DNA of 64,000 nt from Cliona cf. orientalis (taxonomy: Eukaryota; Porifera; Demospongiae; Clionaida; Clionaidae): contig OZ005704.1 in the NCBI GenBank assembly GCA_963930775.1, positions 3,534,001 to 3,598,000 of the forward strand. Reading direction: 5' to 3'. The notes under the pieces were generated by a model, which made no database searches, was not told where the DNA came from, and was given only the letters and a program-made list of their open reading frames with translations. A program made the translations under genes and the position numbers. Shown here in pieces: positions 22,901 through 25,900 of the stretch (position 1 is the stretch's first letter; each line of letters begins with the position of its first letter).

Positions 22901-25900
22901 CCATGGTAAAACTGACTTAGCTGTTTTGCTTTGGTTTACACTGTGCGTATTTACTACATGTACATGTAGGTAAGCATACATGTGTACGTCACGTACCTTA
23001 GATTTGTTCTTAAAACTTGGTGATTCCCCCTGGGATAAAACTACCCACCTTCCTTTGTGGTAAAGCTAAGATTATTCAACAATCTGTACTCAAAGTTTTA
23101 TTGAACGCATACAATGCAACTAGTATTGATATTTGAACAGTAGCGGTATGAATACTAGAATGATGTAAGTTTAATGCGGACATAAGCTTATATTAATATA
23201 ATGTTTACAAACCAGTCTCCTGGTGAGGTTTATGTGTACATGTAAATCAGGTTGATTACAGGATTATACCCTTCTATCCTCACTGTACTAGCTATGCAAC
23301 CCTTGTGTTAAGGCTGTACATAGTGTGCGTGCGCAGCTCAGACATCACCAGTTCACTGTGCAGGGGCTAAGTCTGGTTGAATAATGGAAGCCCTTCCTTG
23401 AACTATAGAGGTATAGACACATCTGGTTCAGCCCTAAATGAGGGGGCTGGAGTGGAACTGTTGGCAAGAGCCACAACTATGATGTCTGGTCTGATCTGGT
23501 TCAGGCAAGATGGTAGGCACCTGCACAAGTCATGTTTAAGGCCTTGCTGTAGGCAGGCTAAGTGAATTTACTAAAATTGGTGAAGGCAAGGGCTACGGCG
23601 GCTCGATAAGCCCTTGGTGAAGGTGACTGCAAGGAGGGAGCTGATTCTGTGTGTGTTGCCCTCCCTTCCCTAGCATCATTGTTAGAATCTAGTTACTACA
23701 TGTAGTGGTGATGAAAATCATCTGTGCAGGGCAAGCCTTCATGAAAATCATAAGATTTCTTTGAAAGCATACAGGCATACAGGAATATACATGGGGTTGG
23801 TACCCCAATAGCTATGCCTGAGAAGCTACCGCGACAGTGAAAGTATCATAGCTATAGACTGCTGATATATAGTCCAAAATATTGATCACCTATACTATAA
23901 TATTTAGTAGTCTACTGTACATGCCATGACCATCACGAGTCCAAGTACCTGTAGCCAGGCCATGAGGGGACAAACAGTCACTTTCATGCTCAGAGAAGTG
24001 ATGTTAATCGTGGACCTAAGCCTAGCTTGCCAGAGTGTTACAGCACTCACCCTTCCAGTTTTATGTCTTTGCCTACACTGTACAGGCCTGAGTTGTCTCT
24101 AAGATCGTGTCAGCTCAGAGTGAGATCGTGTGCACGTGGTGCAGTGCAGGAGCATGCGCATGACGACCATTACCTTACGCGTTCAAAATTTAATTCATTC
24201 CTCGCTGAAATGATCACATACATACAAGTATTATATTATAAAACAAGTACAAAAACAATTGAATAAAATTGAAGAATGAAGTAGGGATGGCAGGATCAAA
24301 AAGTACACAAACAAGAGATAATCGCATCTACTATACATCCTTACGCTTGCTTTTCTCTACTATTGTGCACCTATTAATCATGGTTGACATGTTTATTGAG
24401 TGCAGAATGTGGGAGATATTCGTGCAGGTTGTTCCCTAGTTGTCATGATGGTTCGGGTTTATCAGTTTTGATTCAATCATATTATTACTGGTTATTTTTG
24501 CACCCCTCAAAAAGCAAGCGTAGGGATGTATAGTAGATGCGATTATCTCTTGTTTGTGTACTTTTTGATCCTGCCATCCCTACTTCATTCTTCAATTTTA
24601 TTCAATTGTTTTTGTACTTGTTTCTGTTCTTTTTTATTGCACTTAGTGTAATTTATCAATGTCATCTTACATGGTTTGCTCACAACTTCTGATTAACCGG
24701 AAGATGGGAGGTGCGCAATATTCAATGACGATGAATAGGATGACAAAGAAAGCTGCTTTAGGCGGCCCAAGTAGTGATGAGACTTTCCGCTTAGGGAGAA
24801 AACCAAGTTCTAAGTTTTACTGTTGGCAACAGCTAGCTACCCGGCATAATTTTATGATCTATACGTTTTAATACCGCTGCTCGAGCCTTGTGCCTTCGTA
24901 TCTATGATCGATCCAGCCATAGATTAGCTATATATAATCCAGTGGCGGATCCAGGGGGGGTAAGGGGGGGTGCAAGTGTACCCCGCTTTGGGCTGCATCT
25001 AACACTAAGAAGTACTGATAATAAACTAAATGGAACCCCCCTTTCTGGCTATAGAACCGCTTAGTAAGAAAACTCCTGCTATGGCTCACCTTAGAATGCT
25101 TTAGAAGAAAGTTCGTTCGAAAGCAGATCGATTGGACTGGTAGGGCTGGTAGTTCGTCTCAAAAACGATCGAAATGGGCGTGGTTTTTGCCCCAAAGTGG
25201 GCGTGGCTTCTAAAATTTCGCGCGCGCTTCGCGTGCAAGACTGAACTAGAACCCCCCTTCAAGAAATCCTGGATCCGCCACTGTAATCTATGATCCTGCG
25301 TAGCACTAGCGCTGCAAGCGCTAGCAAGTATAGGTCGCCTATGCCTAGCGCCTTACCGCTCCTCGAGCCTTGAACCTTCATATCCATGATCGGTCCAGCG
25401 CGCCTTTGCACGCGCTAGTGATGTACGAGCGCGCTCAAGCTAGTATTAGCTCCGCCTAGCTATTAATAGGCCGGCGCCTAGGGCCAGGTGCTGTCACATG
25501 ACTTCACCATGGTAACATATTCCGAGCATGCGCATTATTATCACAAAATGGCGTATCAGACACACCCATTCGATAATGCGCCGTACACACCCACTATTAC
25601 GTAACTGTTGAGACAACGCCAAACTAGCGTGCCACTGCACTAAAATAGAGTGGATTTATATGAGAACTAAAGTGAGAGGTCCAGACAGTCTTGAGGTAGC
25701 CCTGGAAATGAGAAAGAAAGAAAGAAAGAAAGAAGAAAGATTGACAAATGGCCCATTTTTTGAACATCTGGTTCTGATGTATACAATTGTTTTGATGAAT
25801 GATCTTGGTCTTGTTAGATGCACAATTTGCTGGAGATTCTGATTTTCACACTTAGAAATTTCATAAAATTACCTATTTTGAGATATTTGGGTATTTGTAA

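What the first reader, a model, noticed from the sequence alone, without database searches (positions are those of the whole stretch)
24241..24623. Long-hairpin repeat family whose two arms co-vary between copies
In five copies (24241, 35783, 37174, 47352, 59146) the arm sequence differs between copies but stays matched within each: GGATC/GATCC, AATGCC/GGCATT, GGGTC/GACCC, AGTGCT/AGCACT. Length insertions are also mirrored (TTTTTAGGGATAA with TTATCCCTAAAAA in copy 2; ATTTTGTAAGGGAT with ATCCCTTACAAAAT in copy 4). Ordinary decay would unpair the arms. Either the arms are homogenised within each copy (snap-back copying or conversion) or the RNA hairpin is selected. I know of no named family with this behaviour.
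Basis: seen in the sequence. Interest (0 to 1): 0.72.

Follow-up and report, generated by a model that had tools for sequence, protein, structure and literature searches.

The report
Transposon hairpin with self-matching arms
A very abundant non-coding jumping element in an animal genome begins with a long hairpin whose two halves appear to be kept identical by copying one half from the other before each copy lands; this is a known kind of DNA copying seen here on an unusually large scale.

Summary
Each hairpin is the 5' end of a ~1.35-1.5 kb non-coding transposon (876 exact 3' ends in a 217 Mb animal genome). It looks like a non-autonomous Helitron2/Helentron (HINE/DINE-1-like): no target duplication, T^A insertion, subterminal inverted repeat, 3' palindrome, head-to-tail tandems. 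No autonomous partner was found. On trees built from loop and body (not arms), substitutions on internal branches are mostly paired in the outer ~90 bp of the stem (15 paired, 7 single-arm) but never in the ~21 bp next to the loop (0 of 6). Changes on terminal branches are mostly single-arm (185 of 224), and paired ones do not rise with a copy's own single-arm changes. Paired indels exist, and in 4 of 146 copies the loop is inverted relative to the body. This fits template-directed homogenisation (snap-back/template switching) before or during transposition better than stepwise RNA selection or ongoing repair in the chromosome. Arm homogenisation and spacer inversion by template switching are published for other inverted repeats. 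The element family, the per-lineage timing and the unconverted apex are, within my searches, new: a new variant of a known kind.

The parts
24243..25959 (+). Element copy 1 (subfamily A), hairpin at 5' end; carries extra internal sequence relative to relatives, and its 3' palindrome lacks 2 nt
   Evidence: 5' ACAAGT; 3' end 25938-25959 read; extra sequence from the L001 alignment
24243..24333 (+). Left arm of copy 1, outer (homogenised) stem
24334..24354 (+). Left arm of copy 1, apex (not homogenised)
24355..24509 (+). Loop of copy 1 (155 nt)
24510..24623 (+). Right arm of copy 1 (apex first, outer stem last)
35784..37170 (+). Element copy 2 (subfamily C): hairpin 35784-36177, body, (GAAA)n 36928-36947, 3' subterminal repeat and palindrome 37135-37170
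37175..38673 (+). Element copy 3 (subfamily A) starting 4 nt after the end of copy 2, head to tail; hairpin 37175-37541; 3' end 38638-38673
47352..48716 (+). Element copy 4 (diverged subfamily B): hairpin 47352-47753; 3' end 48681-48716
59153..59427 (+). Decayed hairpin of an older relative
   Evidence: BLAST match; 35 nt 86% stem

Best explanation
The hairpin is the 5' terminal structure of a high-copy non-autonomous transposon, most likely of the Helitron2/Helentron (HINE/DINE-1) kind (inferred; no autonomous partner found). In the lineage of active copies, a mutation in the outer ~90 bp of one arm is copied into the other arm, or erased by it, before or during transposition, so new copies start with matched outer arms and then decay one arm at a time in the chromosome (supported by tree mapping; 'before or during' is inferred). 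Most likely mechanism (inferred): during DNA synthesis the nascent strand makes one arm, the loop and the first ~20 nt of the second arm on its proper template, then snaps back onto the arm it has just made and copies that outward. This predicts matched outer stems, mirrored indels and an unconverted apex, all seen. Exchange or intermolecular switching between the arms would give the observed loop inversions. The RNA hairpin need not be selected.
For: Trees from loop+body, 146 copies: outer stem internal branches 15 paired, 6 L-only, 1 R-only; apex 0 paired, 4 L-only, 2 R-only (Fisher p=0.0046; with a freely chosen boundary, permutation p=0.016 for substitutions, 0.001 with indels). Terminal branches, outer: 39 paired vs 185 single; internal vs terminal p=1.2e-6. 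Chance control from the 124-copy run: a left-arm change meets a right-arm change at a shifted column on the same branch in 21 of 1442 comparisons. Same lineage, both behaviours: a 24-copy clade shares a paired C>T at stem position 81 and an L-only G>A at 107. Internal indels: two paired in the outer stem, four unpaired at the apex. Of 23 outer single-arm alleles carried by two or more copies, 20 join copies that are not close tree neighbours (rank 7 or worse for the nearest listed), i.e. look recurrent. Paired terminal changes do not rise with single ones (rho 0.06, p=0.49) while single ones rise with branch length (rho 0.39, p=1e-6). Paired internal changes per outer pair (15/297) equal single internal changes per apex arm-site (6/126), as expected if mutation input is equal and copying unbiased; independent double hits would give about 0.2 events (my arithmetic). 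Loop inverted relative to body in L047, L077, L122, L125. Element class. Template switching homogenises arms and inverts spacers in yeast (PMC8604942, abstract and passages).
Against: Paired terminal changes (39 over 297 pairs) are fewer than the apex excess of single changes would predict under obligate unbiased copying (about 0.13 vs 0.34 per site; my arithmetic), and they trend weakly with terminal branch length (rho 0.16, p=0.06; subfamily A 0.30, p=0.02), though unsampled lineage could cause that. Outer pairs change 4-6 times more slowly on internal branches than loop sites, so sequence constraint or a filter on mismatched stems also acts (loop rates are inflated because the tree uses the loop). 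Seven outer single-arm internal events remain: two are one C/T change split over neighbouring nodes, one (position 16) is a parsimony artefact, but L107/L110 share an L-only change, and at positions 53 (L009/L109) and 74 (L032/L033) one sister is paired and the other L-only, so some mismatches may be inherited. Three of 23 shared single-arm alleles join near neighbours (L044/L050, L046/L048, L045/L046). Terminal indel columns are mostly unpaired (172 unpaired, 10 paired). Trees are only partly resolved. The outer/apex boundary was seen in the data before it was tested. The donor arm is not known. Rep/helicase elements abound, but the two fetched share no ends with this element, and on C1 up to 20.28 Mb none of 18 Rep matches has the exact 3' end within 12 kb downstream (compared by eye; only 100 of 876 ends were listed).
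Confidence: 0.6

Rival explanations
1. Selection on an RNA hairpin (small RNA precursor or structured transcript): single-arm changes are removed or compensated stepwise.
For: Arms are long, nearly perfect and change slowly.
Against: Paired transversions (16 of 54 paired outer substitutions) and mirrored indels; the apex, also complementary, keeps inherited single-arm changes; among arm mismatches, mostly young, G-U-type ones do not favour either strand, 82 vs 75 (my tally of the substitution table); no Rfam family at gathering score in 23500-60000; two independent hits are far too rare.
Confidence: 0.07
2. Gene conversion between the arms in the chromosome, continuing after insertion (cruciform or break repair).
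For: Four loop inversions show arm-arm exchange or switching; 39 paired changes lie on terminal branches; weak trend of these with terminal branch length.
Against: Paired terminal changes do not rise steadily with single ones: per copy 0.18, 0.52, 0.24 and 0.22 in copies with 0, 1, 2-3 and 4 or more single outer changes (72, 31, 25 and 18 copies). No obvious reason for the apex to be spared in all three subfamilies.
Confidence: 0.15
3. Filter only: the transposase accepts only well-paired 5' hairpins; rare template-switch repairs anywhere are then amplified, and mismatched copies are dead ends.
For: Few inherited mismatches in the outer stem; outer pairs change more slowly than the loop.
Against: The filter alone cannot create paired indels or paired transversions, so copying is still needed; paired internal changes match the mutation input estimated from the apex without any filter (my arithmetic).
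Confidence: 0.25
4. The element belongs to another class (foldback or MITE-type transposon, or an unknown non-TIR element) rather than Helitron2/Helentron.
For: No autonomous partner found; the 5' hairpin is far longer than the short inverted repeats in the HINE passages I read.
Against: No terminal inverted repeats pairing the two ends; no target duplication in 54 loci, observed like shuffled; T^A site; 3' palindrome; subterminal repeat pair; head-to-tail tandems.
Confidence: 0.3

Closest known systems
DINE-1 / HINE (non-autonomous Helentrons; PMC2374699, PMC4067079, PMC7492417; passages read)
   Same: Non-coding, very high copy number, AT-rich targets, no target duplication, subterminal inverted repeats, inverted repeat near the 5' end, palindrome near the 3' end, short-unit microsatellite. 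Yang and Barbash note that the 3' stem sequence differs among species, suggesting compensatory mutations.
   Different: The 5' inverted repeat in the passages I read is short (7-12 bp in oyster HINEs); here the arms are ~112-127 nt (medians by subfamily) around a 121-166 nt loop. Within-genome tree-mapped paired changes, an unconverted apex and loop flips did not appear in those passages. The autonomous partner is not identified here.
Helitron2 / FoHeli elements (PMC5148889, passages read)
   Same: Asymmetric inverted repeats, hairpins at both ends in FoHeli1/2, insertion between TNAT and A, tandem or joined-end forms.
   Different: Those hairpins have stems of a few bp; FoHelis code for Rep/helicase.
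Template switching between inverted-repeat arms (PMC8604942, PMC8794818; abstracts and passages read)
   Same: Arms homogenised, several paired changes at once, spacer or loop inversion.
   Different: Those cases are short repeats in yeast genes or RNA genes; here a transposon family shows it lineage by lineage, with an unconverted apex.
Galileo / foldback transposons (PMC2775673, passages read)
   Same: Long inverted repeats; in two of four GalileoN copies the two arms are far more alike (0.002, 0.007) than arms of different copies mostly are (Table 2).
   Different: In the other two copies the arms differ by about 0.06 and match an arm of the other copy instead, which I read as the recombination that made the inversion. 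Galileo repeats are the transposon's two termini; here both arms lie at one end.

Membership tests
HINE/DINE-1 (non-autonomous Helentron) | No target site duplication | tested here: met
   54 loci with both ends found, match lengths like shuffled pairs
HINE/DINE-1 (non-autonomous Helentron) | Insertion preference TT / T-rich | tested here: inconclusive
   AT-rich targets, but T before (31 of 54) and A after (41 of 54), i.e. T^A, nearer to Helitron2 FoHeli (PMC5148889)
HINE/DINE-1 (non-autonomous Helentron) | Subterminal inverted repeat pair | tested here: met
   AAGTAGGGATGGC in the 5' arm and GCCATCCCTACTT ahead of the 3' palindrome; the 5' one lies tens of nt in, further than the 2-4 nt reported for mite HINEs
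HINE/DINE-1 (non-autonomous Helentron) | Palindrome at the 3' end | tested here: met
   ATAGAGTC-TACC-GACTCTAT then GAT; 876 exact copies of the 35-nt end
HINE/DINE-1 (non-autonomous Helentron) | Inverted repeat beside the 5' subterminal repeat | tested here: met
   Present but ~112-127 nt long instead of short
HINE/DINE-1 (non-autonomous Helentron) | Autonomous Rep/helicase partner sharing the ends | tested here: inconclusive
   Two of 150 Rep matches fetched with flanks share no ends; 0 of 18 Rep matches on C1 below 20.28 Mb near a listed exact 3' end
Template-switch homogenised inverted repeats | Arms change together | tested here: met
   15 paired vs 7 single-arm changes on internal branches, outer stem
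Template-switch homogenised inverted repeats | Spacer inversion | tested here: met
   4 of 146 copies; 140 scored normal, 2 more (L048, L082) normal by eye
Template-switch homogenised inverted repeats | Copying observed directly during DNA synthesis | not testable with these tools
   needs an experiment
MITE / foldback transposon | Inverted repeats at both ends of the element plus target duplication | tested here: not met
   Both arms lie at one end; body extends ~1 kb past the hairpin; no target duplication

The most novel reading that the evidence does not exclude
The outer left (or right) arm is resynthesised from its partner at essentially every transposition: a self-templated terminus, like the hairpin ends of some linear replicons, built into a rolling-circle transposon. 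Its loop-proximal ~20 bp is the obligatory priming segment and therefore escapes conversion. The genome then holds hundreds of dated records of one snap-back reaction.
Probability: 0.2. Interest if true: 0.75.

Novelty: new variant of a known kind. Interest (0 to 1): 0.5.

Why it matters
Paired changes in a stem are usually read as proof of RNA selection. This family shows the same pattern apparently arising from DNA copying, with its own internal control: complementary apex bases that are not kept paired. It gives hundreds of related copies in which to measure how often, how far and at what stage arm-to-arm copying happens, and it may give a view of Helitron-type transposition intermediates.

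Tried and rejected
RNA-family match: none at gathering score in 23500-60000. Autonomous partner: 150 Helitron_like_N matches in the genome. Two elements fetched (L129, Rep/helicase with a C-terminal endonuclease-like stretch, domain reading from recall; L130) share no ends with this element. Target duplication: none. L-versus-R asymmetry of single terminal changes as a hint to the donor arm: outer 104 vs 81 (p=0.11), of which the first positions (1-7) hold 30 vs 9; apex 55 vs 27 (p=0.003), which I cannot explain. At positions 53 and 74 both sister copies carry the change on L and one also on R; this could mean L is the donor, but two cases are too few. Self-alignment of nine of the ten older relatives fetched printed a hairpin for seven, 89-98% matched; L137 was not tested and none of the ten is in the counts. 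Published-work searches; none of the listings showed a Helitron-type element with arm homogenisation, but only open PMC papers are searched and I read listings and passages, not whole papers. In PMC4168063 none of my six terms occurred.

Rows dropped: L053 and L055 (no full-length match) throughout. In the first tally identical rows were left out: L036, L059 and L079. L036 and L079 are separate insertions, and L059 had a twin only because a neighbouring hairpin was picked in L017; all corrected. Tables quoted are unless stated. Searches count 39 and 38 paired terminal outer changes, by slightly different rules. One search gave no hits (BLAST options); one search repeated it.

Full report
What was given. 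Four are near-perfect inverted repeats of 92-114 nt at the stated places; the fifth (59146) is a decayed relative. Arm variants and mirrored insertions read as claimed. Copies 2 and 4 also carry unpaired insertions on the right arm nearer the loop.

What it is. The genome holding the window has 217 Mb in 149 contigs. It carries Wnt matches at three places (10 matched stretches), so it is an animal; a sponge would fit, but that is only a guess from recall. The hairpin is not an independent repeat. In the copies printed the flank starts to vary just before ACAAGT on the left, but on the right a shared body runs on for ~1 kb to a common end, GCCATCCCTACTTATAGAGTCTACCGACTCTATGAT. Its last 35 nt have 876 exact copies (445 forward, 431 reverse; none for the reversed control pattern). 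No target duplication was found in 54 loci where both ends could be placed; T precedes the element in 31 of 54 and A follows in 41 of 54. The 5' arm contains AAGTAGGGATGGC and the 3' end its complement ahead of a short palindrome; window copies 1-4 carry a GAAA microsatellite. Copy 3 starts 4 nt after copy 2 ends, and L030 and L067 show similar head-to-tail joints (3 of 54 loci, L039 being copy 2). This is the anatomy of non-autonomous Helitron2/Helentron elements (HINE, DINE-1; PMC2374699, PMC4067079, PMC7492417 and PMC5148889, passages read). Rep/helicase elements abound (150 Helitron_like_N matches), but the two I fetched do not share these ends, and none of the 18 Rep matches on contig C1 below 20.28 Mb has a listed exact 3' end within 12 kb downstream (by eye). 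Membership is therefore likely but not shown.

Test of co-variation. I collected 148 A/B/C copies and could use 146 (60 A, 48 B, 38 C). Left arms and reverse-complemented right arms were aligned together. Trees were built per subfamily from loop and body only, and substitutions were placed by parsimony. Outer stem (first ~91 positions): internal branches 15 paired, 6 L-only, 1 R-only; terminal branches 39 paired, 104 L-only, 81 R-only. Apex (last ~21 positions, next to the loop): internal 0 paired, 4 L-only, 2 R-only; terminal 2 paired, 55 L-only, 27 R-only. Internal outer versus apex p=0.0046; outer internal versus terminal p=1.2e-6; terminal outer versus apex p=0.0002. The boundary was seen in an earlier pass; letting it float in permutations gives p=0.016 for substitutions and 0.001 with indels. 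An earlier run with IQ-TREE trees and 124 copies gave the same picture: outer internal 14 paired, 5 single; apex internal 0 paired, 6 single; and as a chance control, left-arm changes met a right-arm change at a shifted column on the same branch in 21 of 1442 comparisons.

Reading of the test. Changes shared by several related copies are mostly paired in the outer stem and single in the apex, sometimes on the same branch: a 24-copy clade shares a paired C>T at 81 and an L-only G>A at 107; L015/L017/L019/L021 share paired changes at 14 and 74 and an L-only change at 98; the five-copy L078 clade shares a paired change at 82 and an R-only one at 104. Indels on internal branches behave alike: two paired in the outer stem, four unpaired at the apex; terminal indel columns are mostly unpaired (172 of 182). 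Differences between subfamily majorities in the outer stem are all paired. Of 23 single-arm outer alleles found in two or more copies, 20 join copies that are not close neighbours on the tree, many at C>T or G>A, i.e. they look recurrent; L044/L050, L046/L048 and L045/L046 are closer. Among the seven outer single-arm internal events, L107/L110 share an L-only change, and at positions 53 and 74 one sister is paired and the other L-only, so copying is not proved to be complete at every step. Terminal changes mostly hit one arm, and paired terminal ones do not rise with single ones (rho 0.06); they do trend weakly with terminal branch length (rho 0.16, p=0.06; A 0.30, p=0.02), which unsampled ancestry could explain. 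So matching seems to be restored in the active lineage, before or during transposition, rather than in the chromosome afterwards.

Mechanism. Double mutation is excluded by rate: from loop rates (0.21-0.28 internal changes per site) I expect about 0.2 same-branch double hits and see 15 (my arithmetic). Paired internal changes per outer pair (15/297) match single internal changes per apex arm-site (6/126), as if each mutation in the outer stem is copied or erased with equal chance; terminal changes fit less well (about 0.13 vs 0.34). The unconverted apex is what intramolecular snap-back predicts: the nascent strand must first copy the loop-proximal part of the second arm correctly to anneal, and only then copies the rest from the first arm. 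Loop inversions (L047, L077, L122, L125 of 146) are the second known signature of template switching (PMC8604942, abstract and passages). A filter by the transposase against mismatched hairpins may act as well, since outer pairs change 4-6 times more slowly than loop sites.

What argues against RNA selection: transversions among paired changes (16 of 54 outer), mirrored indels, no protection of the apex, no strand bias in G-U-type mismatches (82 vs 75, tallied), no Rfam family. Small RNAs could not be tested.

Known and new. Homogenisation of inverted-repeat arms is documented (PMC8604942), and PMC8794818 (abstract and passages) proposes template switching as the way RNA stems are made and kept. 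Long-armed transposons are a weaker parallel: in Galileo, two of four copies in Table 2 of PMC2775673 have arms that match within the copy, two do not. New here, within the searches listed, are the element family with its extreme 5' hairpin, the lineage-by-lineage mapping that points to copying before insertion, and the internal control given by the apex. I rate it a new variant of a known kind.

Noticed in passing
12492-16817: Two 1835-nt arms, 100% complementary, 656 nt apart, with reverse transcriptase ORFs on both strands (RVT_1 just below the Pfam cut-off); looks Penelope-like to me, a young inverted pair.
   Followed up: partly
30635-34930: Minus-strand ORFs with a weak RT_RNaseH match and a possible tyrosine-recombinase-like ORF (my reading, no Pfam match); DIRS-like retroelement suspected.
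   Followed up: no
8525-9115: ORF with a YqaJ-type nuclease domain.
   Followed up: no
55521-56368: Another long inverted repeat, 164 nt arms 95% complementary, 520 nt apart, around an ORF that looks Penelope-like to me (no Pfam match).
   Followed up: no
L131-L140: Older relatives of the hairpin family; in seven of nine tested the arms still match at 89-98%, L135 at 98% with many differences from subfamilies A-C.
   Followed up: partly
stem apex, subfamilies A-C: Left apex collects about twice as many single terminal changes as the right apex (55 vs 27); unexplained.
   Followed up: partly
L129 (whole locus): Intact-looking 2189-aa Rep/helicase ORF of Helentron type with a neighbouring ORF on the other strand that resembles RPA (domain reading from recall).
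   Followed up: partly
L017/L059 region, contig C2 1037512-1039413: A subfamily B and a subfamily C hairpin start about 1.5 kb apart on the same strand, another likely head-to-tail pair.
   Followed up: no
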